Below, in pieces: positions 2,683 through 63,438 of a DNA stretch of 64,000 nt. Numbering within the stretch: the stretch's first letter is position 1; each line of letters opens with the position of its first letter. The translations under genes were made by a program, and so were the position numbers. This DNA comes from Bryopsis sp. KO-2023. Taxonomy: Eukaryota; Chlorophyta; Ulvophyceae; Bryopsidales; Bryopsidaceae. Below the pieces are notes generated by a model that made no database searches, was not told the origin of the DNA, and saw only the letters and a program-made list of their open reading frames with translations. The stretch covers positions 4,092,001-4,156,000 of the forward strand of contig BSYQ01000001.1 in NCBI GenBank assembly GCA_030272585.1, in the 5' to 3' direction.

Positions 2683-3080
2683 TTTACTTCAGCAGACCAA
2701 CATCACACGCATCAAGCCAGGATTATTTGTCCGACAGAAACGCCGCGCGAGCGCCATTATTCACCTGATCTTTGACATTCAAAGAGTAACCGACGAAGTG
2801 CTTTTTTTAGAGAGGGCAGTTTTTTTTTCTGCACGCAGATTCCGAGCGAATCTGAATTTTGTTTTTTCGAAGCTTCTTGCTGTTTCTGATATCTTCACTA
2901 GCCGCCTCTTATTCGTAGACCTCCACGTTTCGTTTCGTTTCACTTTTGGAGGCTTCGTCAAAAAGGTGTGTTTTTAGTGTGACCTTGCAGTAAAATTGGC
3001 ATTCTTGGACCACCAGTGCTTCATTTTGGGAGTCCTGTTTTTGGATATTTTTCAGGAAGAGAGAGAGTTGAGGCAAAAAA
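2683..3080. promoter_or_regulatory. Shared upstream region of TPP2 and RPC4
   Basis: About 400 bp separate the start codons of the divergent TPP2 and RPC4 genes. The stretch is A/T-rich with T-runs near 2805 and 2823. It holds no open frame that I would call a gene. It must contain both promoters and 5' UTRs; I cannot point to a specific element. Confidence 0.5.
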
Positions 3081-4190
3081 ATGTTGAGTCCTGGGCAAGG
3101 TGGTGGCGAAGAGCCACCACCTGACAAAAAAAAGCCCCAAAAGATGAGATTTGCACCTGTTGTAAAAAAGAAGAAAGACAAGAAAAAGAGCGACAAGGAG
3201 AAGAAAAAGAAGGATGTGGTGGCGGGAGGGGATACGGGGAACAACACCGCAGCTTTCCGAGAGCTGATGGAATTCGTGCAATCGGAAGCTTCCTGGAAAA
3301 GGGGGGATGACAGGAGTTACAGGACTGTGCAGATGGGGTCTGTGGCGTTCGGGGCTAGAGACCAATCAGGAGCAGCTGGTGGTCAAGGCAGTCGTGGGGC
3401 TTGGGGTGGTGGCGGAGCAGGGGGTGGGGGGAGCAGTGGTGCTGAGCCATCGATTGCTGGGTTGAAATCGGAGGTCAAAGGTGTGAAGAAGGGCAAAGCC
3501 AAGCGTGGGGAGGTTTCCCCCAGGGAACATCCTGTAGACTTTTCCTCGTATTATCCCACATTTCTTCCGATATCTGGAGATCCCATTGGTCCTAGCGCTA
3601 GTGAACGGCTGGTGAAAGATTTGGTGGTGGGGAGCGATTCCGAGGGGGAAAGCTGCAATGCTGCCGAGGAGTTGAGGCTGGATGGGTCAGATTCAGGGAT
3701 GATGCTGTTTCAACTCCCAGGTTTGTTACCTGTGGCTGCCCCATCCAAGGAGTTTGACAAAGTGAAAAAGAAAGGCAACCAATCCGCCCAGGACTCCGAC
3801 TGCGAAGAGCCCAGAAAAGAGGCAATGAAAACCAAGGATCTTCCAGGAGGGAGGATAGGCAAGCTGATGGTGTTCAAGAGTGGGAAAGTCAAGATGAGAA
3901 TCGGGGACGCTCTGGTGGATGTTTCGCCTGGGGTGGAATATCCTTTCAGACAAGAGGTGGTGGCGGTGAACCTGGAGGATGGGGAAGGCAGGGGTCATTG
4001 CGTTTCGATGGGACATGTGGAAAGCAGAGCTTTATGCACATTGGACATGTTTCAGTTGCTTTCGGAGGAGGCTCTACCCGATTTTCGATCTTTGTATGCA
4101 CGGCAGGATAAGCCCGAAGAGGTGGAAACTGGCCTCGAGCCAGATAAAAGTACTCCAAGGATGGATAAAATGGATGAGGACCCAACATAG
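3081..4190 (+). CDS. RPC4: DNA-directed RNA polymerase III subunit RPC4 (RPC53/POLR3D family)
   Basis: Subunit of nuclear RNA polymerase III that works with RPC5 in initiation, termination and recycling on tRNA and 5S genes. It is a single exon of 369 codons starting at an ATG just upstream of a short proline stretch. The N-terminus has the family's basic block (MRFAPVVKKKKDKKK, residues about 22-36). A Gly-rich low-complexity section follows (about 100-120). The diagnostic RPC4 C-terminal domain covers about residues 255-340: GGRIGKLMVFKSGKVKMRIG, then DVSPGVEYPFRQE, then a GHVESRALCTLD strand. This matches the human order of a K-SG-V-hydrophobic-G motif, a DVS-G motif and a GH--hydrophobic-C-D motif. 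The middle is disordered and Ser/Asp-rich, as is usual. No intron is needed, unlike most neighbours. Confidence 0.85.
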   Translation: MLSPGQGGGEEPPPDKKKPQKMRFAPVVKKKKDKKKSDKEKKKKDVVAGGDTGNNTAAFRELMEFVQSEASWKRGDDRSYRTVQMGSVAFGARDQSGAAGGQGSRGAWGGGGAGGGGSSGAEPSIAGLKSEVKGVKKGKAKRGEVSPREHPVDFSSYYPTFLPISGDPIGPSASERLVKDLVVGSDSEGESCNAAEELRLDGSDSGMMLFQLPGLLPVAAPSKEFDKVKKKGNQSAQDSDCEEPRKEAMKTKDLPGGRIGKLMVFKSGKVKMRIGDALVDVSPGVEYPFRQEVVAVNLEDGEGRGHCVSMGHVESRALCTLDMFQLLSEEALPDFRSLYARQDKPEEVETGLEPDKSTPRMDKMDEDPT

Positions 4191-5590: not shown

Positions 5591-8500
5591 ATGGACGTCC
5601 TGAACGCTATGGCTTCTTGCAGCGACGCGCACCTCAAGGCGAAAGTCGAACACGCTCTGAATATTCTAAAGCGGGCGTGCGTCCTCTACAGGTGAGCCTG
5701 GATGGACTCTTCCACAGATTGGGTGGCTCACCTATCTCACCTCCCTGGGATTCCTTAGATCTCCTGTGGAGTGTTTGTTCATCGTTTTCGGTGTTTCTAA
5801 CGTTGAATTTCGCACGTTCGGTTTCGCAGCCCGGAGCACGTCGCGATGAGTTTCAATGGGGGAAAGGACTCAACTGTGCTGCTCCATCTATTGAGAGCAG
5901 CCTTAACCCGCTATGGCGCGGAAAACGGTGAGATTCCCCGCGTCGAAGTTGCTTCATTCGCACGTCGCTCAGGTTGACGACCGAGGGAGGAGTCCTTTAA
6001 CGCTCGCGTTTATTTTTTATTTTTTGAGCCTGTGATGCATCCACAGGAGGCATTATTGCTGCAAAATCTTTCATATTCTTTCAACCAAACGACTTCATCG
6101 AGATTCGCGACTTTGCGCACGAGATGGATCGGAGGTGATGCCCCCATGACGTCCCAAAATGTTCCTCCCCCATTCCCAATGCTTTGGGCTTAGAATAGGC
6201 TCCATTCAAAAAAGACATCAAAAGAGCAATGTCAATTCTGTGGGGCGGCATTGGCTTTTTTTTCTTTTGAGGAATCTTAGGAGTCTGTATTCACTTGAGA
6301 AGGTCGCTATGGCTGTACACCTGGGGCCTGTTTCAAGTCTCAATCAATGAGCTGTTCATGCGTACCATCATTCTTCTGGAGGTTTCCTCTTCTTTTGAAA
6401 GGGCCACATCGCATCGAGGCAGCCCCTCCACTGTGCAAATCAGTCAATATGGCCCCACTTGCCACCATTTGAAAGCTTTTTTTGAAATCCGAGTTCATTA
6501 TTGTATTTTTTGATGTTCGACGAATGAATAACTCGGAACTTTGTTGGGAACATGACAGATTTCGATTTCTATTTTGCTGATTGGCAGGTATTCCTTAAAT
6601 CTTGACTACTTGGAGGGGCCCTTCAAGGAAGGGCTCGAAAAATACATCGCGAACAACCAAATAAAGGCAGTGGTGCTTGGGACAAGAAGGTATTTCACGA
6701 AAATCCATCATCAACAACCCACAGATCATTGAAAGATTGTAGTGGAAATACGCCACACCAGCAAGGGTGTATATCGAAGATTGGAGATGCTTTGTGTGAA
6801 GGGGTGACCCGAATGCTCCCGGCCAGGGCTTCTTTTGTCCGAGCAGCGATGGCTGGCCACCCTTTATGAGAATCAACCCAATTCTGGATTGGAGCTACCA
6901 AGACGTTTGGGCATTTTTGCGACTTCTTGAGGTCCCCTACTGCCGTCTGTACAATATGGGCTATACATCGGTGGGAGGCACCAACAACACTCATCCAAAC
7001 AAGTGAGGTTTCAACCGTGCGAAACTTGGGGCTGGAAAGCTGGGCAGTCGATGATTGATGAATGTGAAAAAGCTTGGTGCATGGGGATGATGTGCTGCTT
7101 TTTTTTTTCTTTCAGTGCCCTGCTAAAGGAAGATGGCACATTCGCACCCGCTTATCTATTGGCGGACAGTCGTCTGGAGCGATCTTGCCGAGCAATGGTG
7201 AAAATAACTGAACCGCTGTGAATCACATCACCAGAATATCCCTGAAATCAGTACATCGTTCCTTCATGTATTGTGAAATATTGCAAGAGAAATAACAGCC
7301 AAGGAAGGTGAAGATATGTTGTTGTGGGTTTCGATGGTTATCTGGGAATGGGGGTGGGACAGTGTTTTGATGTGGTGAACATGTTTTGCTGCAGGTGTCC
7401 AGAGCACCCTCTGATTCTGCTGGCCACACCAGAAATGCTGGTATAATTGCGATCGGAGACGAATTGTTATCAGGAGAGGTACACACCACTACACACCAGC
7501 AAAACAAGTTCTAACTTTTTTTTTCTTCTTTTTTTTGGGGTGGGGCTTGCATTTTGGATCCACCGGCTTCAATGCACACAGTCGTGTCTGAAACGTTTCG
7601 GTGGCCCATGACGACTGCGTGTTCCTCTTGGTGTTGCAGTCTTGAGAGCTCCTAAAGTTGGCCATGCATCTCTATTTGAAGGTAGAAGACACAAACACAA
7701 ACGCAAACTTCCTGTGCCAAGAGCTGAAGAGCATTGGCTGGAGAGTTCAAAAGGTGAATGCACGTCTGATGTTCTCTTTTACCCCTCCCACACACACACC
7801 CTGCTCAATGCATCTTTTGAGCTAGACAATCAGTATGGTTTGTGGTGTTGGGTTTTTTGTGTAGGTGGTGTTTGTCGGTGACGACATCCGAGCTATTGCT
7901 GAGGAAGTTCGAAGTCTTTCAGCGTCTTGTGATTTGGTCATTACATCAGGAGGGGTGGGCCCCACTCTGGATGATGTAACTATGGATGGCATCGCCAGAG
8001 CTATGGATGCATCCCTAGCCAGGTATACCTTCGCTCGCTATTTGCTGGTTGAAACCACCAGATGGTAGTTCCCCCCATTGTTCTCTCGAAGTCAACGTTT
8101 CGAATAAACTGAACCTTAGAATGAAGCTGAGTGTGTCGCAGTAGTGTTTGCTCACCATGACTGAGTCACGCAGGCATCCAGTGCTTGAGGAGCGGATCAG
8201 GGGACATTTTGGTGAAAACGTGACCGAGGCTCACCTCAAGATGGCGGAGGCACCGAACGGGTGAGAAAAACAACAACAAAAGGAGTGAAATTCCTGCTCT
8301 TTCGTACCACATTTGGGTACTGTGCAGGGAATCATACTTCTCTCGAACATCCATAGGGCTGCAGAAAATGCAGCCCTTCCAACATCTGATTCTCAAAAAG
8401 GGGGCTTCACGCAGTGGAAGATAGCAATTCCTGATGTGTGGATGTTCTGGAGGGACGTTTTAGTTTTAAGTCATGCTTCAAATTTTTTTGCCCAGAATCG

Positions 8501-13396: not shown

Positions 13397-16300
13397 TCAT
13401 GTATTTTCCCCTGCGACCAACCCCTCACTCGCTTCAAGCGAAGAACCAGCCCTTGAGCGAGTTGGCTCAGAAACCTGTTCCACCGCTACTTTCCCTTGAC
13501 CGTAGAAATTGCCTCCCAGTAACTTGAATATTTTTTTCATCTGTGTCCACACCATGCCACCCCCTTCCTTCCTTTCGCCTGGATCAGCGATTTCGCTTGA
13601 ATCTCCATCTACTTTTGCTGAGCCTAGGAGCCCCTTGCTGGCCATCTCTTCGTTGAACCCCTCGATCACTTCTTTCATTTGGTGTCGTGCAAGGAAACCA
13701 CGCACCGCAGCTTGCACGTACAAAGCAGCGTAGAAGTGAGCAGCCGTATACTTGGGGAACTGAAGGTCGTCTGGCAGTCTGGGATACATCTTCTCGTGAA
13801 TCTTGTGTTCTTCGTCCTCTGGCAGCTGTGTTCCCGCCACTCGACCGGCGAGCGCGTGCAGAGTTTCAAGGAAATGCACTTTGTTGTTTCTGTTTGGGAT
13901 GTCGACGGACATTATGATATTTTGAATGGCGGCGGGCCCACCATTCGTCCCCCTTGTACCCAAAGGTGGGGAAAGCTCTGAGATCAGGGTGGATAATTTA
14001 ACTGTGGGAATATAGCAGGTGGCGTCAGGGTCCAGATCAGACCACACCTGAAAACAGGCAACCGTAATAGATTCAATGGTCGTGGATCGAATGCTGGTAG
14101 CTCAAGCAACCCATTTTTCTGAAAGCGCTCATCAGAGCGGCGGGAAACCGTACCTCCATGAACCAAAGCAAGTGTCCTCTTCCCACAGGCATCTCCTCAT
14201 TTTGCGATGTGGATTGGAAGTTGTCGAGAATAACAGCTATGACCAGGTTGAGCAGAATGAAAGCGCACACCACAACAAATACGCAAAAGTATAAGATCGC
14301 AGCTATCTCGTGGGGAGTGCATTTGTCCTCGTATGCATTGACGGGCAGATCACCGAGAATCGGATCCCCTTTGGAAAAATAGTGTCCGGCTGCATACGTT
14401 GTGCCATCGCTGGTCACTGTGTTTTCCTTCAGAAGAACGCAGTCCTTGGTCCTCATGCAATCGTGCATTATTCCGTTCCAAGACTCCCCCGTTGCCATCC
14501 GAAACAGCAACAGCAAAGCTTGAGGAAACGTTTCGAAATTTGCGTGCCTGTCAAGGAAGTCTCCATGGCGGATGTTTCCGAATAGGTTCATGCCCATGAT
14601 CGCAAATATGAAGAAGAAGAGGAACAACACACTTCCCACATTCACCAACGCAGGGAGAGAGTGAACCAGTGTTTGGAAAAGGGTGCGCAGCCCCTTGGCC
14701 TTGGGTATCAGACGGAACATACGTGCCACTCGAAATACTCGCAGCAACGATACAACAGGCACTTGCTCGTCAGAGGATATGTCGACAACAATCCCAATTA
14801 TCGAGAAAACCACGACTGAGAAGTCAAAAGCGTTCCATGCATCCTGCAAATCAAACAAGACAGTTCAGACACGGGAGTTCTTTCCACACGCGCCGCCACC
14901 TGCCGCCTCAAAAAAACAACTCAACATACACAGGACACACCTTGAAGTAAGTTTCTACGCCCAAAGCGAAGAGCTTCACAGCCGCCTCAATTGTGAAAAA
15001 CCCAGTGAAGGTGACCCCAGCCAGGAACAGCAGTTTCGTCCAAAACTCCGTCATATCCGCGTGCTGCATGGCCATGAAGAGGATGTTCAGCATTATCATC
15101 GCCATGACAGAGGCATCGAATTTCCTGGAGGTCACAACTTTGAAGACCTTCCTTCTGAACAGGTTCTCTGGAGGAGTGCATTGTCGATAAGGTCGTGTTG
15201 CCGCCAGCAGCTTTTGAACGTGAAGCCATTGCTCTTGTTCAGCTGTCAGCAGAAGCGATCTACCCTCTTGCTTTTGTTGCATCTCGTTGAACTGGTCACA
15301 AACGGGGATCCAACAAGGGGTTCAATTGCAGCTTGCGTCAAAAATGATTCATTTTAGAGGGCGGGAAGTGAACGATCTCGCATTGGTGCTGAAGAATATG
15401 GCTCGGGGATGAAAGGCGGCGGCTGGAGTTCCCTTACCTTGTCGATTGTGACACCAACGAACAGGTTCAGCACGAAAAACGATCCAACGATGATGAAAAG
15501 CACGAAGAAGATGCAGATGTATGGATTGTTGTTGTATACTGGCTGCTGATCGACACCCACAGCATCGATGCCATCGTACATTATCGCCATCCACATTTCC
15601 AAAGTGGCCATTTCGAAGAGGGTCAACATCGCCAACCCAATGTTATCGAAGTTGACATTTCTGTTCACCCACCTGCCCATCCAACGAGGAGATGCAATCA
15701 TTTTTGAATGTTGGTTTTTGTGAGTTCAGTTGGGGAAGCCTTTGTTGTCAGGAATCTTTGTTTTCTGTTGTGCTTGGGTTGGTGATTGTGGTTGCATACT
15801 TGTGCTGTATTTCGTAGGGTGGAACCTCCACCCCAATGCTTGAGTGATAGGCTGAAGATGTTATCGTGTGGTTGGATTCCTCACACCATTGACGATCAAT
15901 GGTTGATCCTTCCGGTAAAACTTCTGTAGCATCGATCCTCTTCCCTGACTGGTCCATACAATAGTAGTACCTACCCTACATACAGCAACAGGTTCATTTT
16001 GTCTGACGAAGCCGATCCACATGCACGTCCCATCATCTGAAAGTGAACTGATGTCAGCAATGGCTTTTTACTCACCTTCAGAAGGTTGATGCCGAGAATC
16101 CCAAAGATGAGGAAAAACAGCAAGCACACCAGAAGAACATTGAAAATCGGGGGAATGCTCTGGAACAGAGCATTGACCACGACTTTCATTCCTTCGTTCC
16201 GGCTTGCTACACGGATCGGCCTCAACGCTCGAAGCGTTCTCAAAGCCCTCAATGAAGTCAGCTGGGAGCTGTTTGGGCCCACAAGCAAGATGATCCCCAC

Positions 16301-19300
16301 CACCACGATGACAAAATCCAGCACATTCCACGGGTTCCGTAGGTAGCTGCCTTTGCCATTGAAAGCGAACCCATACACGAAAATCTTGAGCATGGCTTCC
16401 ACAGCAAACACCACCACGAAGCCTGTGTCCGCTGCTGTGAGAACACGGTTGAATGTGCTGTCTGGATCCAGAGTGGGAGAGTCCAGGGCCAAGATGATCG
16501 AAGAAGCACAGATCAGAGCAATGATCACATGCTCAAAATTTCTATGCCCCACAATCAATGCCAAGTGAAGGCGAACGGTGTTGCTCGGAGTGAACAAGAA
16601 CAAGGTCTTGCCCTCCAACGTATCTCGAATGACTTGGAGCCTGGACTGTGTTTCAGCGGAAGCCCTCGACATGTGCGACAAAGATCTAGTGACGGTGGAT
16701 TTCTTGACCTGGGGCTCGTTCCCCTGTGGCGCCTCCTCCCTTCTTTCCTCGTTCTCTTCATATGCAGCCCCTATCAAACTGTTGTAGGTCAGGGAAGCAT
16801 CTGAAATGGGCGGCAGCTCGATCTTTCCAGATTCATGCTCTTCGTCACTCTCATCAGAGGACCCCTCCGTGTCCCCACTGACCCCAGCAAAATTGTCCAG
16901 CAATATCGCTAAAAATAGATTCAGAATGATGTAGTTTCCGAGCACCACCAGCATGATGAAATACACGGCTGCCAGGTCTGTCGTTGATCGCATTCCATCA
17001 TACATGACAGCGTTCCAATCTTCCCCCGTCAGGATCTGGAAAATCGTAATCACCGACCAGAAGATGTTGTCGAAATTATGCCTGGAAACGGACGATTTCC
17101 CCACATGAGCGAGGTACTGGGTTTGACTTCCTCCCTCCTCCCCCCTGGGGAACTTCTCACAATATGCCATACTGTTGTAAGGCGCTCCTGGGGCGGACAC
17201 CCAGCTGCCCACCTCATCCGTGCTGCATCGTACGTAGCAATCATAATGCTTCGGGCAATCTTTCAAAGGATCCAGCCCGGGTGGACAGACGGCCTCCGAT
17301 CCGGCGACCGTGTCGCAGAATTGAAACTGAAATCCGAAGAGCTGCATCCCGAGCAGAGCTGTGATGAAAATGAACAGCAGAAGGATCAAGGACAGGTATG
17401 CGATCGACGCCAAACTCTTGAATATCGTGTTGATGATTTTGTTCAGCTCCTTCCAGGATCTCGCCAGCTTGAACACCCGCATCAGTCTGAATGTCCTGAG
17501 AATGGACAGCGACCCCCCAAGTCCGCTGGTGTTGGGTATGAGCGTGATCAGGATCTCAATGAGACTGGCGATCACCACCACCCCATCGAACACGTTCATT
17601 TTATCCTCTATGTAGCCCCTCAACTGCAGTCCGACCACCTTGACCACCATCTCGAACGCGAAATAGGTGGTCAGGATGAGATTCACATTCTCTGAAATGG
17701 TGCCCTGCCAATCAGGCATCCCGTGGTGCTCCGCCGCCATCACAATCGTGTTTATGACGATCAGGATCATTGTCAATATCTCGAATTTCGGGTTCTTCTG
17801 TATTCGGTAGCACCACCTCGCGATCCTGTATCGGTGGACCACCGGGATTTGAAAATCGACATCGTGTGAATAAGTCGATGATCTTCTGCCCTCCCTGCCA
17901 CACTCGTCCCCGATAAAATCGTTCTCAGCATCCGAATTGGTGAAGTAGAGATACAAGACCGCCAACGCCAGATTCACCGCGAAAAAGGACCCAAACACGA
18001 TGAGAACCGTGAAATATATCCAGACGAAAGGGCTCGATGAATCTTGAATGCTGTACATGATGTTGACCCAGCCCTCCAACGAGATGCATTGGAAAATGGT
18101 GAGCCATGCCCACAGGATGCTGTCGAAGCTGGTGATTCCGAAATTGGGGTTTCCCGTCTTGGTGCAAAACAGTCCATGAGGATAGGCTTCGCTGGGGCCT
18201 GGGCAGCTCCTTCCAGCTCCCCTGGTGCCTCCTGTCGCCAGGAAATCCCCCCCGTCCAGAGACCAGGCGATATCCGCGGTCATTTTACCACTACACACTT
18301 GATCCATCTCTTGGGACGGCACGACGTACGTGATGTTATGCAGGTTTTCTGCATCCAAATTGGACGGGTAGGCACATCTAAACATTCAAGCGCATTCACA
18401 TGTTTTATATATTTCCTTGGCTGTTCACGTAACTATAAGAGAAGAAGAAGTCACTTGGCTGGTCCAGTCTCGTTCAACATCCAAGAAAAAAAACATCAAT
18501 GCACAATGATATGTGTTGGGCCGGAGGGGATCCACTTTCCCAAACATGCTTTTTATTGAAAAAACAACAATTTGAGCATGGGCAAACCACAAATCATACC
18601 ACCCACATGATGATAATATGATGATATCTATGCCCATTGATTTGACAATTAACAAAAAAAGGCCACTCATGTTTAAGAGAAAGATTGGAAAAATGTGGAG
18701 AGGTCGGACAGGCACCGAAAAACAGGATGACAGGAGGTTCACCTGTTCTCCAGAATTCCTGCAAAAAGCTGGACCCCGACGATGCCAAAGATAAAGAAAG
18801 CAAATGCACAGAGGATCATCACATCCAAAAGCATGGGGAGAGACTTCAAAAGAGTAACCACCAAAACCTGCCATAAGAACACCACACGCACAAACACGTT
18901 AATAACAACTTTGCTATTGAACAAATCCGTCATCCACAACTGCAAACACTACCAGAAACTCCTTCTCCCTTTCAACCGCCCCCCTCCCCCGAAAAAAAAG
19001 AAAAGAAAAACAAATATATATATACTAATAAGTAACAATAATACTGATAAAAAATAAGGAAGAAAACCGATCCCTCCTCTCTGAATTTCTGCAGCTCATT
19101 TTGTTTTTTGTTTTTGGATTACCCAACAAGCATTTTTCTTTTTTAGTAATCAAAAAAAAAAGAAAAAAAAGGGGTACAAATGTTGCAGTCATTGGATTTT
19201 GTGGAGTGTCACGAGCGGCTCAATGTGCTTACCAAGCTCTCGTCCTACCCGCATGCCTTCAATGCCCGTGATCGTTCTCAAGGGACGAAATACCCTCACA

Positions 19301-50339: not shown

Positions 50340-51383
50340 CTATCCACTTGAGTGAGAAATGACATGTGGAGGCAACAGCAAGATCCTGCCGTCGATCACG
50401 AAAGAAGCTCCTTGGACCGACCCTGAGGAGGAGGAGTCCGACTCCAGGCACGTTTCAGCATACTCCAGCGTGCTGCTGTCCACCGCGATGCTCCAGGACC
50501 ACATGTGATTCAAGACATCCAACACTTGATCCTGGGTGCCCCCGTTGATAAGATTCCTCAGCAAAGAATTCATCGTGTCGGCCTCCAGAGGCACGCCAGC
50601 GGTGCGCATTTCGTCGAAGAGCTGATGCGCCATGTCTGTCAATCGACCCGCCTCCAGCACAAGCATCAGAGCATGAATCGTTCCCGACTCCGCGCGCCGC
50701 CCCAGTTGCTGCATTTTCATGAAAAACGCGAGCCCCTTTCGAACCTCACCCACGTAAGCGCAGTACTCGAGGAACCCAGCGTACGCTTGAGCTGGGCCTG
50801 GAATGCCCTTATCGTGGAGCTCGTTCAGGATTTCCTCTGCGCGACCCCAGGTGCCGCTCTTTACGCAGATTTCTACCACGCAGAACAGGGTGGCTCTGTC
50901 GGGTTCGATGTCCGCCTCCACCATTTCGTGGAAAAATTCCAATGCTGTGGTGTAGAGCCCTCCTCGCTCGCACGCAGCGATCACGGCGCTGTAGGTCACC
51001 CTCGACGGTTTGCACTCCGGATCGAACCGTGCGTCCTCCTTCATCTCGTCAAAGTACTGCAGCGCCAGGCCCCACTGCCCTGCGTTATTGAAAGCGGATA
51101 TCATAGCGGAGTAGGTGTATTTGTTCGGCTTCAGGGGAGTGATCGACTCTGAGTCGGGGCATATCATGGATTCGAACACCTCGATCGCCTTTTCCCACTG
51201 GCCCAAGCCACCGCACATGACGATCAATTTGGTGAAGGCTGGCTCTTTCGGACCGAACGTGCAAGTCTCGATCCATTTGCGCACTTCGCCCGTTCCAACA
51301 TTCGCCACCATGATCGCTCTCTTCAGCGAGTTCATGTCTGGCGCAGGACCAGATTTCAAAGCCGATGCACGCCTCCTTCCCAT
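50340..51383 (-). CDS. Pentatricopeptide repeat (PPR) protein 1
   Basis: PPR proteins bind organelle RNA through tandem 35-residue helical hairpins. This one is a single exon of 347 residues from the ATG at 51383 (MGRRRASALKSGPAPDMNSL). Recognisable repeats include PNKYTYSAMISAFNNAGQWG, SRVTYSAVIAACERGGLYTT and PDRATLFCVVEICVKSGTWG, then weaker ones down to about residue 300. It has no DYW or E extension. The reading frame stays open upstream of the ATG with a basic, Ser-rich run, so a longer targeting region or a 5' exon is possible. It is a clear paralogue of the PPR gene at 56.4-57.7 kb, sharing the head segment (DMNSLK...GTGEVRKWIETCTF versus DMDTLK...GTGDVREAIRSCTF). Target organelle is unknown. 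Confidence 0.88.
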   Translation of the reverse strand: MGRRRASALKSGPAPDMNSLKRAIMVANVGTGEVRKWIETCTFGPKEPAFTKLIVMCGGLGQWEKAIEVFESMICPDSESITPLKPNKYTYSAMISAFNNAGQWGLALQYFDEMKEDARFDPECKPSRVTYSAVIAACERGGLYTTALEFFHEMVEADIEPDRATLFCVVEICVKSGTWGRAEEILNELHDKGIPGPAQAYAGFLEYCAYVGEVRKGLAFFMKMQQLGRRAESGTIHALMLVLEAGRLTDMAHQLFDEMRTAGVPLEADTMNSLLRNLINGGTQDQVLDVLNHMWSWSIAVDSSTLEYAETCLESDSSSSGSVQGASFVIDGRILLLPPHVISHSSG

Positions 51384-53682
51384 GGCTGCGAATGAACGTA
51401 TCGAAAAAACACTTTTTTTTTTACCACGACGGGCAATATGTGATAAAGACTCGAGACAATATTTATGGGGGGAAGGAGCACGAGAGCAGCGTGTAATGGG
51501 GAGGAAAAAATCGCTCCGTTTTTTGTGCCGGGTAACATCGGACCCCGTGGTCCGGATACTAGAGAGCTCGCGTTTGATGCGACAATGAAGCCTTTCCTCG
51601 GATGCGTTGGAGTTTTTTGTGGTGGCTACTCTCCACGCTCGGCCCAGCCAACCTCCCCCTACCACAATGAGTTCACAAACGCACACATAACCTGCCAATC
51701 GACGCCTGCAATGTGGCCTGTCGTGTGCTCAACCACGTCGCTTGATGCGAACCAGACCTCATCGTCGGCTCTGTTATGCACGCTCCAACGTTCAGGGGTC
51801 ATCACAGGATTTCCGTGATCACCGCCACAGCACCAAGTGGCGGCTGCGGCTGCGGTTGATGGCTGTTCGCGATTGCAATTTGCAGGAATATATATTGGGC
51901 TGAGCATTTATACACCACAGACAGACAAACACAAACAGATATATGATATGGAATGGTAACGCCTCGGGACGTCGAAGGTGTTCGTTTGCGAAGAATCAAC
52001 TTGAGGGGTTTTCCACAAAGCTGTATCGTCTCAGGACATTTTCGAGAGGGGCACGGGTGAATTGGGAAGAAACGAGGAGAAAATAGGGAATTTTGAGCAG
52101 ACTGTTCATGTGGGTGGGTGGGTGTGGTGTGCTTCCATTGAGGATCATGCGTTCAAATAATCATGCTTGGCTCTGCTTACAATTCCACACCAAGGTAACA
52201 AAAATCCCATTTTTTGATTGGCTCTGAGGCACAACCAAGCAGCGACCTACCCGTGTTGTCCAAAATGCTGTTTATTCCAACAGATTTTCCCTGATCCCAA
52301 ATCGTTCCCCTGACAATGCCGAAATCCTAATCACCCACCTACCTTCTGTAATTCTTTTTTTTTTTTCCTCAGTTCAGAAATTTTGCAACAAAAAGAAAAA
52401 AAAAGGAAAAAAAAAGAAACAAAAAAAAAACACCAGGTCAATGCTGGTCAATAATTGGAGTTCCAAATATTTTGTTCGCTTTTGATAAGTTCTCCCAAAA
52501 TCTTTTTCGCGTTTTTTTGATCAAATCAATATTCCTACCATTTTACTGCTACACATGTCGATACACATGTATAATATGCATTCCTGTGGTTTCCCCCCCC
52601 TCCCCTTTCCCCCCCCCATTTCAAATCAGTAAATGCAAAAGCTGGACTTCCTATCGATTATTTTTCCAACTTCGACAAACCTTTCTTATCGGGCATCACA
52701 CAAAATAAAGGTATAAAAAAAAGATGGTTTTAAAAAAGAAAAGAAAAGGATTTAACATATATAATCAAAAAAAAAACAAGCAAGACTAACCAACCGACGG
52801 AAGAACCCTTTCTCTGTGAAACATTCCCCCCCTCCCACCCCAAATAACCCCCTTTTCTCCCCTTTTTTTCTTTCTTTTTTTCTCTTTTTTCTCCTCTTGA
52901 TTTTTCTCCCCTTCTTGCATCCTGGTTAGTTTTTTTTTTCTTTTTTCTTTTTTTTTTGCCTCTTTTCGACCTTTAAAATTCACAAGGCCCATGATCACAT
53001 CCATTTGTATATACAGAAGATATATAAACATATTAATATAACGACAGAGATATATATGTGTATATATATATATATTTCCCCTTGAGCCCAAGAAAAAAAA
53101 AATGAAAAAAAAAAGAAAAGTAAAAAAACAAGAAGAAGAAAAAAAAAGCCTCAAAATGATAGTATTAATCACCTCCTGATTTAGAACAGTAATTTTCATT
53201 CCACACATCCTTGATTCAGGGAAGGTCTTTTCAAAAGTAGTAATAGCAATGCTTCTTTTTGTGTTTTTTTTTTGTTCGTCTTTCTTTTATTCAGAACAAT
53301 TAGTCATGTCACACAGACCTCATTCACGCTGTTATTGCAGATTATTTGATCACACATCAGCAATAAAAAGAAAAAGCGCCACTGTCGAGACTTGTCAAAT
53401 ACTCCCATTTTAGCTCGTGTTTTTGATTGAATATTTCCAGAGAAAAAAAACAGACCTTGCCCATCCTGAGAGAAAAAAACAAAACAAACAAAAAAAATAA
53501 TCAACATTGTCATGACAGACATAGAGCTGGGCGTAAATATCACTGTGCGAATGAACAAGGTTGCCTGGAGCTTCCAGCCTCTGCGCAATTCATATTGAAC
53601 CATAATAATCATTACTATCCATTTCTTTATCTACATCCCAAACCCACATTATGAATAACTATCCATTTCTTTATTTAAATCC
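51384..53682. other. 2.3 kb spacer upstream of PPR protein 1
   Basis: 51384-52000 has ordinary composition and presumably the PPR promoter. 52350-53300 is dominated by A-, T- and C-runs and a (TA)n-like stretch near 53049-53076. No supported exon. The 3' end of the NPF-motif gene enters at 53683. Confidence 0.5.
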
Positions 53683-56431: not shown

Positions 56432-57678
56432 TCACTCCCCACACACCAAAAAGTGTGCTGCAAGATTGTGCTTCCCCGCAGCCCTGCAAGCTTCTGCAAC
56501 CACCCCCAGCGATTCACGGCAAGGTAACAAGCCGGATCGATGCATCCCTTGCAGCACACTCAAGGAGCATTGCCAGCGCCCGGCCGCAGCCAAGAGCGAC
56601 AATGCCATGTTATAGGTTTTCCCATCGATGGGCATCCCACTGCCCTCCATCGAATTCAGCAAGTCCATGGCGTAAGAGTCCTGACCTCCGGCCAACAGGC
56701 CGCTCATCAGCGCTCGACAGCAGTGTACATCGGGCTGAATCCCGGCCATTTGCATGGTCAGGAAAATATCCACCGCCTCCCGGTAGCTCTCAGCGGTGGC
56801 GTAATGCATCAACAGTTCGTAATAGATTCCCAACGGAGCGGCGAAGCCACGGCGATGCGCATCGTCCAGTATATCTGTGGCCATGGAAAACTGTTTGCTT
56901 TTCATGCAGGACCAGAGCACGCAGGAGTACGTCGCCTGGTCCGGCACGACACGCGCTGCTTTCATCTCGCCGAACTTGGCTATGGCTTCATCGTACATAC
57001 TGCCGCGTTCGCAAGCAGCGATGACCGCGCCATACGAGACCTGCAGCGTGCAGCACAAACATAAATATATTGCAGCACTGTTTCACACGCAACGAACACT
57101 CGACGAACCATCGCTGAACAGCGACCGGCACAGATTTCTTCCATCTGCAGCCACGGTACCGCTCGGAACAACGGAAGTCTTGATTCATCACAATACCCAC
57201 CCACCTGGTTTGGTCGACATCCCGGGTCGCTCTTTGACGCCTTCTGCATAGCGTAGAACACCTCCAGCGCCCGTTTCCACGCACCGCAACAGGAGCACGC
57301 GGTGATCAGGGCAGAGTACGTGTACTTGTTAGGTCTCATCCCCCTCACCACTTTCATAGCTTCGAACACCTCCATGGCTTTGCGCAAGTCCCCCATGCGA
57401 CCAGCCAACTCAATCAGCGCGGTGAACGCCTGCTCGCGCGGCTTGAAAGTACACGACCTGATGGCCTCTCTGACGTCCCCGGTCCCGGACTTGGCGGCAA
57501 CGATTCGGATCTTCAACGTATCCATATCCCAGGCGGATTTGTTCAAGTCCTTCGAGAAAAAACTGAACCCGAGCTCCAATCCTCGGTTGAGTTCGCCGCC
57601 CTTCGCCCTATTTCTCGGTCGACCAGCGCCGGGAGACCTGCTCTCGTTACGAAAGCCTTTCACATATCCAGGAGCCAT
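56432..57678 (-). CDS. Pentatricopeptide repeat (PPR) protein 2
   Basis: Paralogue of PPR protein 1. Two exons (57678-57205 and 57040-56432) join in phase to 360 residues. The N-terminus is basic (MAPGYVKGFRNESRSPGAGR). Repeats include PNKYTYSALITACSCCGAWK, then after the intron VSYGAVIAACERGSMYDEA, PDQATYSCVLWSCMKSKQFS, PLGIYYELLMHYATAESYRE, PDVHCCRALMSGLLAGGQDS and GKTYNMALSLLAAAGRWQCS. There is no DYW or E domain. The intron falls between two repeats (after CRPNQ); the matching place in PPR 1 (CKPSR then VTYSAV) is uninterrupted. It is divergent from the DysF-lipase gene. An organelle RNA-processing role is inferred from the family. Confidence 0.88.
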
Positions 57679-57965
57679 TGTTCGACGGATGTTTTTTTTT
57701 TTTTTTCTGTCTCTTTCTTCCAACCGAACTCGAAGAGAGAGGCTCGTTCCTCGTCGACCGTCCCCGACCCGAAAGCAGCAAAAACTCGACGTGCACGTGG
57801 CTCCACAATGCACAACCGCCTTTTTTTCTCTTTTTTCCCCTCCCATAAGCCATGTCGGATCACCCGGATCCATTCAAAATCGCTGAGCAATTTTCTGTAA
57901 TAAACGTACCGTTCCAGAATGGAACTACGTAAGCCTCGTTTCACGCTTTTTTCTCTCTTGTACAG
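57679..57965. promoter_or_regulatory. Shared upstream region of PPR protein 2 and the DysF-lipase gene
   Basis: About 290 bp separate the divergent start codons. A T-run lies at about 57691-57706 close to the PPR start. No defined element is recognised; the call is from gene arrangement. Confidence 0.45.
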
Positions 57966-60900
57966 ATGGAGGCAGAAAGACGGATGGATCACGTCTGGGA
58001 AAATCAGCGCTGCTACGGCTTGCTGGGCTGGTAAAGGAAGTTGCTGTTGTGTTGCAGCCCTGTTTTTATTTCCCCAACCCCACCCCCTTTCCCTTAGTAA
58101 AATTATAGACTCAGAAACAGTCAGGTGTCCATGTGATCTATCATCACAGAGGAGTGCTGCACTGTTTTGATCGGGAACAAATATGGTTTTACCCTTCCCA
58201 CACCATGTGGGGTGAATCCTTCTGGAGAGCCCATTCCTCAGTTGCTGTTTCATGATGTCCAGGTTTCCCCCCCATTTCGATCTGCCACAGTTCACAGACG
58301 GTTCAGGGGCTGCAGTGCAGTTCAAAGAAGGGGAGGATCCGAATTCATCCAATAATTGGCGATGCGAAGTTTCCTTGCACACAGATTCGGAGGGCTGGCT
58401 GTACAGCACCGGGTTTTCTCGCATCGGCGTGCCCAGGGAAGGAGGCCGAGCATCGAAACGAGCCACAGATTCTGTCCGACGGAGAAAGTGGATGACAGTT
58501 GCTGAGGTGAGTGTCAGAAATGGACACAGGGTTTCCATTTTGATGCTTTTTTATTTCCCCATGGGTTGAGTGTGGCTGTTTCCACCGCCAATTTTTGACA
58601 GGGCCAAGTAAATGCACCCTCTATTCCTGCTCGTAAGAAGCGGAGCTTGATGCTCTATCGGTAAGCAGTTGAGGATATGGCTTCCATCACCAACTTGTGT
58701 TATCCTTTTGTTTTTGCTACTCGATAGTGGTGATTCCAGATCGTCTGATGCAGGGGGCTGCGGGCATTCGTTGGAATGTTTTCTGGTGGGTGGATCTGTC
58801 CTGTAGGTAGCATCTTTCTATTTGTTTAAATTGGAATATATGCATCATGGAGCTAAGGTGCCTGCTGGAAAAATTTTCTGACACGTTTTTCGTCTTTCGC
58901 TGGCTCCAGAGGTACTGCAGCGCCGGCAAATATGGGAGGTTTTGCCCTGGGATCCTGGAGCTTGGTTGGTCGTCCATGCCGAGCACCAAGAATATATCAA
59001 GTAGGGCTGTAGCTGTTCACTAGGGAAAAAAATGACATTAATTTTGTTCACAGAAAAGTGCAAGTATCCACCAGCTTCAAACCCGTGGTCGTTGAATGAG
59101 GGGCGAAGCTTCAGAATGTGTCAGTACTTAGTCAGCAATGCTTCATGTAGGGCCCTGCTGTCTCTGGAGGCTGCGATAAAGAAATGTGCGCTTTCCACGG
59201 AAGCAGTGTCAAAAGAGTTGATGTTGGAAATCGAGTGCGGTGCCGTGCACTCCCGGGCTGCGTATGGCTACGTTCTCTGGGCAGGTCACATGGAGTCGGT
59301 GGATGCTGTGGTGATGTTGCACACAGTTCACAACAAATAGTAAGTGCCCTCTACATTCAATAAATTATTCATTCGAAGAAGTTTTGCCCAGGGCTTGTGC
59401 AGTCAACCCTGATGGGTGGCTCTGGTAGCATATTTCACACACTGGCATGGCTGGTCAATGCATAGATATTGGTGAATGTATTGGAGGCAATGCTGTGGTT
59501 TGATTTTTTTGGCTGAAATCGCCCAGTGGTTCCATTTCTGGGTGACAACCATCTCTTTACCAAGCATTTTTGATGTTGGTTTAGTTTCGATCCGGTCACC
59601 GGTGCATCAGGCGAAGCCAATCGAAAAGCGGTGTGTGCTCTAGCTGACATTGAGGAGGAGGATGTCTTGATGGCCGAGTGGGGCAACAGTCAGTATCGCC
59701 CTTGTCACTACGTGGCTATTGACAGGAAGAGGCGCAGAGTGATGGTTGTGATCAGGTAATGAAATCTGGAAATGTGGGGTGTCAGAAAGGGGGGGGGTGA
59801 GACGGGTTTTAATTGTGGATTTGATTTTTGGGCCAGGGGTTCTCTGGAAACGGGGGATGTGATAACGGATGTGACAGGGCAGCCTCTGAGCGTCACTATT
59901 GGAGGAACCTCTGGAACGGTGCACATCGGAGTGATGTCGGCTGCGACCTATGTGCAGTGCAGCATTCAAGATGCACTGAAGGAGGCCGCGGAGAAAGTTC
60001 CAGGGTGGCCTCTGCTGATCACTGGACATTCTCTGGGAGGTGAGTAATCAGTTCACCAATATTTCGGTAGATTCTGTATGTTTGTTTTTCTTTTCTCAAC
60101 AATAGAACGTCTGTTTGCACAGATTTTCTCTGTCCATTTAATCTGGAGGTACGTTTTTTCGTTTCAGGTGGAGTCGCAGTCCTGTTGACTATGCTGCTCA
60201 GAGAGGAGGGGTCTCTGAATTTCAAGACTGTCCGGGGTGTTGGAATCGGCCCTGCCTCAGGTAAAAAACTGTGTTTTTTTTCTTGAATTCTTCCTTTTCC
60301 CAGCTCTCTGAACAGGTCCCCGAATGGAGTTTTGTCCAGAAACTTAACCTTCGTCGAATAAGTTTTGAGAAATCAGCACACTGGATATTCCTCAGTTTCT
60401 TGCTTGTTGTGGAGCAGTGGTGTCAGAGGAACTGGCTGAGCAATGTCGGGGATTTTTCACTTCGGTGATCAATCGGAGTGACGTTGTTCCACGCCTGAGC
60501 TGTGCAAGCGTAGAAGCTCTGCTGTTGGAACTGACAAATGCCAGCCCTGCCACGAAAGCAGTTCAAGGGCTCGTCCAATCAGCCACCTCTGCACTGCAAT
60601 CACTCAAAGAAAAGTGAGCTTCAGGGGGGCATTTTGTCGATTTGGCATCAGAAATGTGAAAAACTGTGTTTCCAGCGGGTCATTCCTTCTGCTCTGTGCT
60701 TGCAGCAGCGGTCTTTGTTTCATGCTTTTTGGGGGTGCGAACCGTTGCTCATATCAAGATCCAGGGTGTGCTTTTTAGGTTGTTTGAGGATAGTTTCAAG
60801 GAGCTGCCCCACTATGTTCCATCCGCAAGGGGAGGGTCCATGACCAAGCCAGGGTTCAAGGGACTGATGCCTTTGTTCCAGGATGAAGACGCAATTAAAC

Positions 60901-62099
60901 GCGCTGCCAAAGCTGCTCAAGATGCACTGGATGTGCCACAAATCAAGGTCATTGAAATGCAAACACCCAAAAAAACCCCAAGCCAGCTACCAGAGGTCCA
61001 AGCAGAAATCCCGGTTGCTGAGAAGACTGGTACGTTGGCTTTTTCCCAACACATCAGGCACTGGTTCACTCTATGGGGATGCATAATTAGTCATAGAAAC
61101 TTGAGTTTGTGTTGGCTGGATTCTAATCATGCTTAACAAGAAAACGGATGGCTAGTATTGTTATCTACACTAAGAAATGAAGAGGTTTGGTGAACTGGAC
61201 GTGGTTTCCTAGCAGCAAGCTCAAAAGACCCCAAGGCGATGGACAATTTGGTGTTCCCTGGTGGCAGTGGGTCCTTCACGCCCATGCACCCAGCAGGGGA
61301 TGCTTATTGGATCATATCGGTGCTCGAGGATGGTGAAAAATCAAAGAAGAAACAGGAGCCTGATTGGTGGGATAAGCTGCAAAGCTGGGGAAAAGAAAAA
61401 CTCTTCAGATCCGGGTCGCAGACCGACCTTTCTGAAGGAATCGGCAGTGGGGAGCTGAAAGGCTGCGCGTCCAGAGATTTGGAGTGGATCGATAAATGGA
61501 TCAAGGAACGGTTGCAGGAGGTACGCCCTATCAGGAAGCTTTCCATTTGTTTCGTGATGCTCAATCTCTCTCCAGATTGATTTTATGGTGAATAATAAAT
61601 AATTCTAATTATAAATAACAATTATTATTCTAATTATAAATAATAATAAGTATTATTATTATAACATTTTCCAGGTGCTCGATGAGGGCGAGGGCAAACA
61701 GAATGATCCTGAAATACCTGTGGTGGAATCTGTCCCCTGCGAGCCTCCCAGGATTGATGCCGACATGGCAAGACCCACCAACCATTCCGAGGAGGAGAAG
61801 CAGGATCAAGAAGCTGCTGCTTTACCAAGGTATTCGCCCCCCCCAACCTCTTTCTTCAGAAATTAGACCCCCCCTCAATTTTCTCTGTGTTGGGTTGGGT
61901 TCTCTTGCCGAGATGGATAGTGTTGGTGCTTGTTGATTCACTTCTGGTGAGTTGTGTTGTTCGGGTGCTGCAGGAGGGTGGTTTTGCTTGAAGCTGATAG
62001 TAAGACTTTCGAGCGGATCTTGGTCAACCCAGACATGATCAACGACCATCTCCCCAATGCATATTTGGCCTCCATACAGATGTTGGTGAAAGACATGTA
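57966..62099 (+). CDS. DysF-domain and class 3 (DAGL-type) lipase fusion protein
   Basis: About fourteen exons, roughly 780 residues. The N-terminus is a DysF module (as in dysferlin, Tectonin/TECPR proteins and fungal peroxins): VWENQRCYGLLGWFPP splits across exons 57966-58030 and 58263-58506, then WRCEVSLHTDSEGWLYSTGF and DSVRRRKW. After a basic linker comes a lipase resembling diacylglycerol lipase: MAEWGNSQYRPCHYVAIDRK, VMVVIRGSLETGDVITDVTG, the nucleophile elbow ITGHSLGG (about 60025), GVGIGPAS, NRSDVVPRLS with the likely acid residue, and a C-terminal FPGGSGSFTPMHPAGDAYWI with a candidate His. It ends INDHLPNAYLASIQ. No transmembrane helix is obvious. It probably hydrolyses acylglycerols or phospholipids at a membrane recognised by DysF; that is inference. 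Exon joins near 58730-58990 and 60615-60780 are the least certain. Confidence 0.82.
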
Positions 62100-62231
62100 G
62101 GGGGGAAAACTTTCAACTATTGTTGATTAATTAACTATTCGTAGATTAATCGATTTGTGGAAATCCTGCTCTGGGCCGATTTGAGCTGTTCTGGTTTTGG
62201 GGATGTGGAAACTGTAAAATGTTGATGTACA

Positions 62232-63438
62232 ATGGGGGATTCAATACGTGTTGGCCATGCTTTCTATGGAATGCATGCGTGCGTTACATTCGAGCACTCG
62301 TTCCCTGAGGCCAATCGCATCTTCTGTTTCCGTTCAGACCAACATCGGTTTGTTGTTTCAGCTTTGGGAAGCTCGAGCCGATTACACATGCCTCTCTGGC
62401 AATCATCAGCGCAAGATAACTTTCGCTCCACACATCTAAAGCAGAACATACCGCAACCCAGCTCATCTCCTTCTGGAACTCGAAAAGTAAAACGCGCGGA
62501 ATCCAGTCCCATCTTTGATCTGCCCGCGCAACGAGCAGGGGATTTCCAAAAGGTTAATGAAGTTACCCAGCCCCGCCACCCAGGCAGCCCTTACCTCTAC
62601 AGCTCAAAATACTTTGGGGTGGCACATGGTCAGCTGGGCATACTGACAACGAGAAAGGTAGGTCAGCGGGGCCTTTGACTGACGAAACTGGAGGGAGCGG
62701 AATGGAACCGAAATGAAAGAAATCCCAAGGATTTGCATTTTGATGGGCGGTTGTGTATCGCTTGCCTCCCATGTGATGATTTCCATGCATTTCAGGAGCT
62801 ACCCCACAAGTGGACCGAAGTGGAGCGCACGTATTTGCCCCACCCCCCACACCTGAAACTCGATTCCGAGGTGCGGGCCTTGAAATGGTTACAGCCAAAC
62901 ACGCTCAGCACGCACCGTCTCGTAACCAAGGGGTTGCCCCGTTTCGCTTGCGCAGGAAGTCAGGGCGATCAGTCCCTATCGACCCGATGCCAATTGCGTC
63001 GAGCAGAATTTCTGTCCTGACGATTCTCCAAGTGTCAACCGCAAGGATGGTGAATCCACCACTAAAAACCCAGCTTCCACTCTCGTGGATGGCGTGGAAA
63101 ACGCTCTAGGGAACGAGTGGATTAATGGGGGTCGAGCCCATGGCCGTTTCCTCAGGTCCTCGCAGCGTCCAGAATCCTGGAGCCGGGATTCGAACTCGAC
63201 GCGATCTCCAGTGTGCCAGCCGAGGCGTGCGAAGTCGAGAGTGGAGTACGCTGATGTAGCGACACGCACGGAATCTCCATCGAGTCCTTCGTCGATGCTG
63301 CCAGGGTTCGGGGGCAGCAAGCTTCGACATTGTGGCAAAACTCAAAAGAAACAGAAACAGAGACCACACACGAGTCCGTCAAGAGGGAGTCGTCTGTCTG
63401 GCCGGATATCCCCAAGAAGTCCCCGAAGCATCGCGTAG
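62232..63438 (+). CDS. Unidentified Ser/Arg-rich protein
   Basis: It starts at an ATG 132 bases after the lipase stop (MGDSIRVGHAFYGMHACVTF). Exon 1 runs to about 62658, ending GQLGILTTRK before a GTAGGT donor. Exon 2 starts after the AG at about 62796 (ELPHKWTEVERTYLPHPP). From there two readings exist. One goes straight to a stop near 63018. The other uses an intron of about 40 bases (GT near 62921, AG near 62957) and continues EVRAISPYRPDANCVEQNFC to a stop at 63438 with a basic, Ser-rich tail. I prefer the second because the frame stays open for 480 bases. No domain is recognised. The short intron is a weak point. Confidence 0.5.

What the first reader, a model, noticed from the sequence alone, without database searches (positions are those of the whole stretch)
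57966..62099. DysF domain fused to a DAGL-type lipase
One gene links a peroxin/dysferlin (DysF) module at the N-terminus to a complete-looking class 3 lipase with GHSLGG, an acid-residue motif and a candidate His. DysF domains are known in peroxisome-size peroxins, dysferlins and tectonin proteins; I do not recall them fused to a lipase. Membrane recognition coupled to lipid hydrolysis, perhaps at peroxisomes or at wound sites, would be new for a green alga. PEX1 and a Ca2+ channel lie in the same window, but that is probably chance.
Basis: partly seen in the sequence, partly recalled or inferred. Interest (0 to 1): 0.72.

Follow-up and report, generated by a model that had tools for sequence, protein, structure and literature searches.

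The report
Lipid-sensing domain joined to algal lipase
In a giant-celled green seaweed, probably Bryopsis, one gene appears to join a short domain of a membrane-lipid-recognising type (DysF) to a diacylglycerol-lipase-type enzyme, a pairing that would let the enzyme be aimed at particular membranes, but no transcript was available to prove that the two halves are one protein.

Summary
A 14-exon GT-AG gene model (57966-62100, +) reads through 768 codons without a stop. Its second half is a clear class 3 lipase (Pfam Lipase_3, 1.7e-20) of diacylglycerol lipase (DAGL) type, with Ser, Asp and His placed. The N-terminus is a divergent, shortened DysF domain: Pfam does not find it and a profile of two human DysF domains does not separate it from shuffles. 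It is recognised through a canonical DysF domain of the same genome: tblastn E 2e-4, 41%; 32.6 bits against 13.3 for the best of 5,000 shuffles. The join is supported, not proven: exon 2 meets exon 5 in frame without exons 3-4, but exon 3 has no codon support and many open models exist. The genome is a siphonous green alga, almost certainly Bryopsis. No peroxisomal motif or strongly hydrophobic segment. Most likely a soluble DAGL recruited to phosphatidic-acid-rich or damaged membranes. Five paper searches showed no DysF-lipase fusion (the last two uninformative). No other eukaryotic genome could be searched.

The parts
57852..57928 (+). possible upstream first exon (alternative start ATG 57852; donor GTAAGC at 57929, acceptor before 57980), uncertain
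   Evidence: open joined reading printed; no transcript data
57966..58030 (+). exon 1: MEAERRMDHVWENQRCYGLLG(W), start of the DysF-like domain (ENQR motif)
   Evidence: donor CTG|GTAAAG
58263..58506 (+). exon 2: rest of the DysF-like domain (FTDGSG, W..EV, DSEGWLY, RRRKW)
   Evidence: codon score +33.5 bits; donor GAG|GTGAGT
58602..58660 (+). exon 3, linker, unsupported by codon use and uncertain
   Evidence: codon score -2.1 bits; another frame +3.0 once stops are set aside; boundaries vary among top models
58728..58785 (+). exon 4, linker, uncertain (acceptors 58740 and 58754 appear in equally good models)
   Evidence: codon score +6.4
58910..59000 (+). exon 5, linker; joins exon 2 in frame with or without exons 3-4
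   Evidence: codon score +7.3; 11 of the 12 best models end an exon at 59000 and resume at 59054, the exon start varying
59054..59339 (+). exon 6, region before the lipase core
59585..59755 (+). exon 7, start of lipase core
59837..60039 (+). exon 8, lipase core with catalytic GHSLG(G), Ser390
   Evidence: Lipase_3 match
60168..60260 (+). exon 9, lipase core
   Evidence: within the Lipase_3 match; codon score +10.2, another frame +10.9 with two stops
60418..60613 (+). exon 10, SDVVPRLS with catalytic Asp445 (acceptor 60415 also possible; 3-base difference, same frame)
   Evidence: acceptor chosen by inspection
60779..61029 (+). exon 11, insert between Asp and His
61213..61520 (+). exon 12, FPGGSG...YWIISV, candidate equivalent of the LYPAGRILHLV segment of L021
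   Evidence: codon score +57.0; equivalence by inspection, the alignment does not pair the two
61675..61829 (+). exon 13, acidic stretch
61974..62100 (+). exon 14, ILVNPDMINDHLP with catalytic-His candidate His752, and stop codon
   Evidence: aligned to MSRSMVGDHFVPRY of L021
62213..62217 (+). TGTAA, possible poly(A) signal, only sense copy in 57900-62400
   Evidence: 57966-62300: 1 found, 3.6 expected; 105 of 1,000 random runs have 1 or none; its use in green algae is recalled

Best explanation
One gene of a Bryopsis-like siphonous green alga encodes a soluble protein of about 730-770 residues: a short, divergent DysF domain (about residues 8-103), a weakly defined linker (about 104-190), and a diacylglycerol-lipase-type alpha/beta hydrolase with Ser390/Asp445/His752 (768-residue numbering). 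The DysF domain most likely docks the enzyme on membranes rich in phosphatidic acid or showing packing defects (damaged, or at ER-organelle contacts), so that the lipase removes an acyl chain from diacylglycerol made there. Shown: the domain order in the DNA, the lipase family, the triad motifs, the DysF similarity. Inferred: one transcript, catalytic activity, the lipid bound, the site and the physiological role.
For: Open 14-exon GT-AG model; good donor right after the DysF domain (GAG|GTGAGT, 7.7 bits with a matrix that did not include it); exon 2 to exon 5 in frame even without exons 3-4; codon score best in the chosen frame for 12 of 14 exons with stops set aside. Lipase_3 1.7e-20; solved fungal lipases match at 3.1e-8; the best lipase matches elsewhere in the genome are two DAGL-like genes, L021 (30%) and L022 (40%) over the matched stretches. 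DysF similarity; the bridge domain is canonical: Pex24p 2.2e-10, TECPR1 8p5p 4.7e-7, dysferlin 1.7e-4. Highest 19-residue hydropathy is 1.7, at the nucleophile elbow. Lipid binding of DysF: Pex30, Pex31 and human dysferlin DysF float with phosphatidic-acid liposomes (PMC12101077 and PMC12101078, passages); TECPR1 DysF binds sphingomyelin and is needed to reach damaged lysosomes (PMC10481663, passages). The Pex30 insertion loop, four hydrophobic residues flanked by two Trp, has a look-alike here (Tyr17-GlyLeuLeuGly-Trp22); this matching is my inference.
Against: No RNA evidence. The DysF domain is divergent: not detected by Pfam or in the PDB, not separated from shuffles by a human-only profile, and lacking the P-x-GWEW block (14-column gap). 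Most basic residues of the Pex30 lipid loop seem absent, and in one study the Pex30, Pex31 and dysferlin DysF domains were tested at high phosphatidic acid (40%), so phosphatidic acid need not be the ligand. Exon 3 has no codon support and the linker is ambiguous. No homologue was found in the virus and prokaryote collections, the only others I could search.
Confidence: 0.47

Rival explanations
1. Two neighbouring genes: a small DysF-like protein (exons 1-2 or 1-4) and a separate DAGL-type lipase that starts in exon 5 or 6.
For: The linker is the weakest part: exon 3 scores below zero, and reading on past exon 2 to the stop at 58569 is only mildly uncoding (-2.6 bits over 20 codons; the -10.1 is mostly the stop penalty). 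In-frame ATGs exist in exon 5 (SSMPSTKN) and at 59032. DysF proteins without the membrane region of the Pex23 family exist (Spo73; PMC8172628 passages).
Against: No sense TGTAA between 57966 and 62212 and no AATAAA or ATTAAA at 58.5-59.0 kb (weak); good donor at the end of the DysF domain; exon 5 is best coded in the frame that joins exon 2.
Confidence: 0.23
2. The N-terminus is not a DysF domain but an unrelated Trp/Arg-rich stretch that resembles one.
For: Not found by Pfam or in the PDB; human-only profile no better than the best of 5,000 shuffles; GWEW block missing; the model of exon 2 alone has low confidence (mean pLDDT 54.3).
Against: 41% identity to a canonical DysF domain of the same genome, E 2e-4, 32.6 bits against 13.3 for the best of 5,000 shuffles; motif order ENQR ... 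D.EGW.Y ... RRR.W is kept.
Confidence: 0.12
3. Correct fusion, but the DysF part is a protein-binding or regulatory module (for example tethering or inhibiting the lipase) and does not sense a membrane lipid.
For: Only part of the Pex30 lipid-contact pattern is kept (inference and the sequence); the Arg/Trp stack of dysferlin was predicted to serve contacts with other proteins (PMC12101077, passage).
Against: Lipid binding is reported for Pex30, Pex28, Pex29, Pex31, dysferlin and TECPR1 DysF domains.
Confidence: 0.15

Closest known systems
Diacylglycerol lipases (DAGL alpha/beta type; in this genome probably L022 on C9 and L021 on C11)
   Same: Class 3 lipase core, GHS(L/M)GG, D-VVP acid motif, long insert, C-terminal His in an M-x-x-DH motif (against L021)
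   Different: No strongly hydrophobic N-terminal segments; a DysF-like domain instead. That animal DAGLs have N-terminal membrane segments is recalled
TECPR1 (DysF + tectonin repeats + PH)
   Same: DysF domain used to reach damaged membranes (PMC10481663, passages)
   Different: No lipase described; two DysF domains and beta-propeller repeats, PH; its DysF keeps a WEW block that is missing here
Pex30 / Pex23 family and Spo73
   Same: DysF domain on a cytosolic part; Pex30 DysF binds phosphatidic acid
   Different: Pex23-family proteins carry several transmembrane parts (Spo73-like ones usually not) and no lipase is described; Pfam Pex24p does not match the window protein
Dysferlin / myoferlin
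   Same: DysF domain; dysferlin inner DysF binds phosphatidic acid
   Different: C2 domains and a membrane anchor; no lipase described
DysF-containing, possibly VPS13-like gene of the same genome (L018, C6:5722380)
   Same: Nearest DysF relative found, 41% in the matched stretch
   Different: Near a VPS13_VAB-like stretch (2.2e-4, 20.3 bits, below its cut-off of 22.6); canonical DysF

Membership tests
Class 3 lipase (Pfam Lipase_3) | profile score above the curated cut-off | tested here: met
   73.8 bits against 22, E 1.7e-20, residues 322-453 of the 769-residue model
Diacylglycerol lipase type | Ser-Asp-His triad with the His in a C-terminal M-x-x-DH motif after a long insert | tested here: met
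   S390, D445, H752; all three aligned with L021; that L021 is a DAGL and the human DAGL residues are recalled
Diacylglycerol lipase type | N-terminal transmembrane domain (animal DAGL; recalled) | tested here: not met
   best 19-residue hydropathy window 1.7, at the nucleophile elbow; no dedicated predictor was run
Diacylglycerol lipase type | hydrolysis of diacylglycerol | not testable with these tools
   needs an enzyme assay
DysF domain | ENQR first strand, D-x-EGW-x-Y and RRR-x-W at the end | tested here: met
   alignment
DysF domain | central P-x-GWEW block | tested here: not met
   14-column gap against L018
DysF domain | significant similarity to a known DysF domain | tested here: met
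   only through L018: E 2.1e-4 genome-wide, 32.6 bits; to Pfam, PDB and a human-only profile not significant
DysF domain | DysF fold | tested here: inconclusive
   exon 2 alone, single sequence, mean pLDDT 54.3
Pex24p / Pex23 peroxin family | Pfam Pex24p match over the cut-off, with the membrane part | tested here: not met
   no match at E up to 1; no strongly hydrophobic segment outside the lipase core

The most novel reading that the evidence does not exclude
A single-chain membrane-damage lipase: in a giant coenocyte that survives cutting by making new membrane around extruded cytoplasm, the DysF part senses phosphatidic acid or packing defects at the wound and the DAGL part converts local diacylglycerol into monoacylglycerol and free fatty acid, remodelling the new membrane and releasing a lipid wound signal.
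Probability: 0.1. Interest if true: 0.75.

Novelty: new variant of a known kind. Interest (0 to 1): 0.42.

Why it matters
DysF domains have recently been shown to bind lipids (PMC12101077, PMC12101078, PMC10481663; passages), but how that binding is turned into an output is open. A natural fusion of a DysF domain to a lipid hydrolase would suggest one output directly, and Bryopsis, with its striking wound repair (PMC3252328, passages), would be a good place to test it. If the fusion is real it also shows DysF outside peroxins, ferlins and tectonin proteins.

Tried and rejected
Peroxisomal targeting: no PTS1 or PTS2 pattern. Membrane anchoring: no strongly hydrophobic stretch besides the nucleophile elbow. 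Alternative splice model B (exon 4 skipped, exon 5 in another frame, acceptor 59059): open, but its acceptor scores -1.5 bits and exon 5 scores lower in both other frames. A first enumeration of linker models used a wrong start frame and too strict a site filter; one search replaced it. The scoring rewards extra introns (no intron penalty), so I do not use its ranking of exon-3/4 variants (model A ranks 9 of 2,176). The codon scores penalise stops by about 7.5 bits each, which flattered the model; one search repeats them with stops set aside and I use those. The noncoding background in both is the base composition of this model's own introns, so it is not independent. Relatives in virus and prokaryote collections: none confirmed (0 of 10 pattern matches; 0 of 102). 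Other DysF-like places in the genome, by eye: C11:1776289 (L020) looks like a decayed copy of the L018 exon; C6:2015008 (L019) shows no DysF motif. NCBIfam gave only a match far below its cut-off (12.9 of 320 bits). The fold of exon 2 alone was too poor to search with. Paper searches were uninformative (59: 'dysf' also matched 'dysfunction', 769 papers, 10 listed).
Full report
What is there. Reading the + strand from 57966 to 62100, I built a 14-exon model in which 13 of 13 introns are GT-AG and the joined exons give 769 codons without a stop before the last. Moving exon 10 to the CAG acceptor three bases downstream (60418) gives 768 codons, used for numbering below. Codon usage was trained on seven long frames of this genome against the base composition of the model's own introns. 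With stops penalised the chosen frame is best in 14 of 14 exons and 37 of 39 intron frames score below -5 bits, the other two -1.3 and +7.8. With stops set aside it is best in 12 of 14 exons (not 3 and 9), and 33 of 39 intron frames are below zero. Exon 3 has no codon support.

The lipase half. Pfam Lipase_3 matches residues 322-453 at 1.7e-20, 73.8 bits against a cut-off of 22. Solved fungal lipases match at 3.1e-8. In the genome the best lipase matches outside the locus are a DAGL-like gene on C11 (L021, 30% over residues 285-469) and one on C9 (L022, 40% over 372-465). L022 has hydrophobic stretches upstream of its lipase frame (by eye). Aligned to L021, the nucleophile is Ser390 (GHSLGG), the acid Asp445 (SDVVPRLS) and the His His752 (MINDHLP against MVGDHFVP). 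So it is DAGL-type in sequence; activity is untested.

The DysF half. Pfam finds nothing in the N-terminal 137 residues at E up to 1 and the PDB nothing at E up to 10. A profile of human TECPR1 and dysferlin DysF gives 12.2 bits, just behind the best of 5,000 shuffles (12.4). By itself that would not support the claim. But the genome holds a canonical DysF domain (C6:5722380, L018), the only Pex24p match found in it (2.4e-8): 2.2e-10 in the frame, TECPR1 8p5p 4.7e-7, dysferlin 1.7e-4. The window protein matches it at E 2.1e-4 over the whole genome, 41% identity over residues 53-101, and at 32.6 bits against 13.3 for the best of 5,000 shuffles. A three-sequence profile that includes it gives 32.1 bits against 14.7 for the best of 20,000 shuffles, and with it the exon 2 frame is the only one of 1,032 window ORFs among the seven best rows. 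The motif order ENQR, W..EV, DSEGWLY, RRRKW is kept, but the P-x-GWEW block is missing. I call it a divergent, shortened DysF domain. Exon 2 alone, folded without relatives, gave a poor model (mean pLDDT 54.3) with two long strands.

Are the halves one gene? For: a good donor directly after the DysF domain; exon 2 and exon 5 are in the same phase, so the join is open with exons 3-4 (768 aa) or without them (729 aa); 11 of the 12 best linker models end an exon at 59000 and resume at 59054; the only sense TGTAA in 57900-62400 lies 113 bases after the stop, where 3.6 would be expected in 57966-62300 (105 of 1,000 random runs have one or none), and the AATAAA/ATTAAA copies are at 59359, 60894 and 61594, not between the halves. 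Against: 2,176 open linker models pass my loose filter, so openness is cheap; exon 3 is unsupported; reading on past exon 2 is only mildly uncoding (-2.6 bits without the stop); exon 2 to exon 6 without exon 5 is out of frame. I put one transcript at about 0.7 (0.75). The start may be ATG 57966 or, with one more exon, ATG 57852.

The organism. Contig C28 (91,672 bases) carries rbcL whose PDB matches include 1gk8 near the top (that 1gk8 is Chlamydomonas is recalled), and C27 (356,152 bases) carries cox1 in pieces. A light-harvesting exon is identical at 120 of 122 positions, by my count in the printed alignment, to Bry-Lhcb1, a siphonaxanthin light-harvesting protein (8hlv; second in the table behind a multi-domain LHCI chain, 9vfj_2, that is less alike per domain). 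The genome is therefore a siphonous green alga, almost certainly Bryopsis. B. hypnoides has a 408,555-base mitochondrial genome (PMC11852573, abstract), so a very large one is in keeping with the genus.

How it may work. DysF domains of Pex30, Pex31 and dysferlin float with phosphatidic-acid liposomes, at 10% in one study and 40% in the other, and Pex30 uses aromatic and basic residues of one end of the domain (PMC12101077, PMC12101078, passages). TECPR1 uses its N-terminal DysF and sphingomyelin to reach damaged lysosomes (PMC10481663, passages). In the window protein the loop that seems to match is R15-C-Y17-GLLG-W22-F: aromatic residues flank four residues as in Pex30, but most basic residues are absent, so the ligand is open (my inference). 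Without a strongly hydrophobic segment or peroxisomal motif the enzyme is probably cytosolic and recruited. Acting on diacylglycerol next to phosphatidic acid would fit ER-lipid droplet contacts or wound sites. Bryopsis protoplasts survive without a membrane for 10-20 minutes and then make membranes and wall de novo (PMC3252328, passages), which makes the wound idea attractive, but no data on this gene support it.

Known or new. Five paper searches combined DysF or related words with lipase or algae. None listed a paper about such a fusion; 32 and 59 returned unrelated papers, and the three papers were seen only in the listing. PMC8172628 (passages) has no 'lipase'. An algal table of autophagy genes lists Pex24p with a kinase in Volvox and several Lipase_3 proteins; the two passages seen hold no Pex24p-Lipase_3 pair (PMC3407069). 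The virus and prokaryote collections gave no relative. Other eukaryotic proteomes could not be searched, so I call it a new variant of a known kind, with that limit.

Surroundings. A PPR gene starts on the opposite strand at about 57680, 170-290 bases from this gene's start, suggesting a shared promoter region.

Noticed in passing
L018:4369-4776 and 7103-8185 (G000:C6:5722380 region): A gene with a canonical DysF domain near a VPS13 adaptor-binding-like stretch (VPS13_VAB 2.2e-4, 20.3 bits, cut-off 22.6): possibly a VPS13-type lipid-transfer protein with a DysF domain (8 frames scanned, 6 without a match).
   Followed up: partly
L020 (G000:C11:1776289 region): What looks like a decayed copy of the L018 DysF exon, with stops and frame breaks (by eye).
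   Followed up: no
L001-L008 and others (C8, C12, C14, C16): Eleven Lipase_3 places, L021 not counted, lie in open frames of 670-884 aa. Six of the eight loci held were compared and are 35-65% identical; L002 and L007 were dropped because the script took a wrong frame. An expanded lipase family.
   Followed up: partly
window 15974-18385 (-): Cation-channel frame, Ion_trans 3.7e-120 in three stretches.
   Followed up: no
window 3072-4187 (+): RNA polymerase III subunit RPC4-like frame, 2.3e-25.
   Followed up: no
window 50343-51728 (-) and 56432-57681 (-): PPR-repeat frames; the second pair lies head-to-head with the DysF-lipase gene.
   Followed up: no
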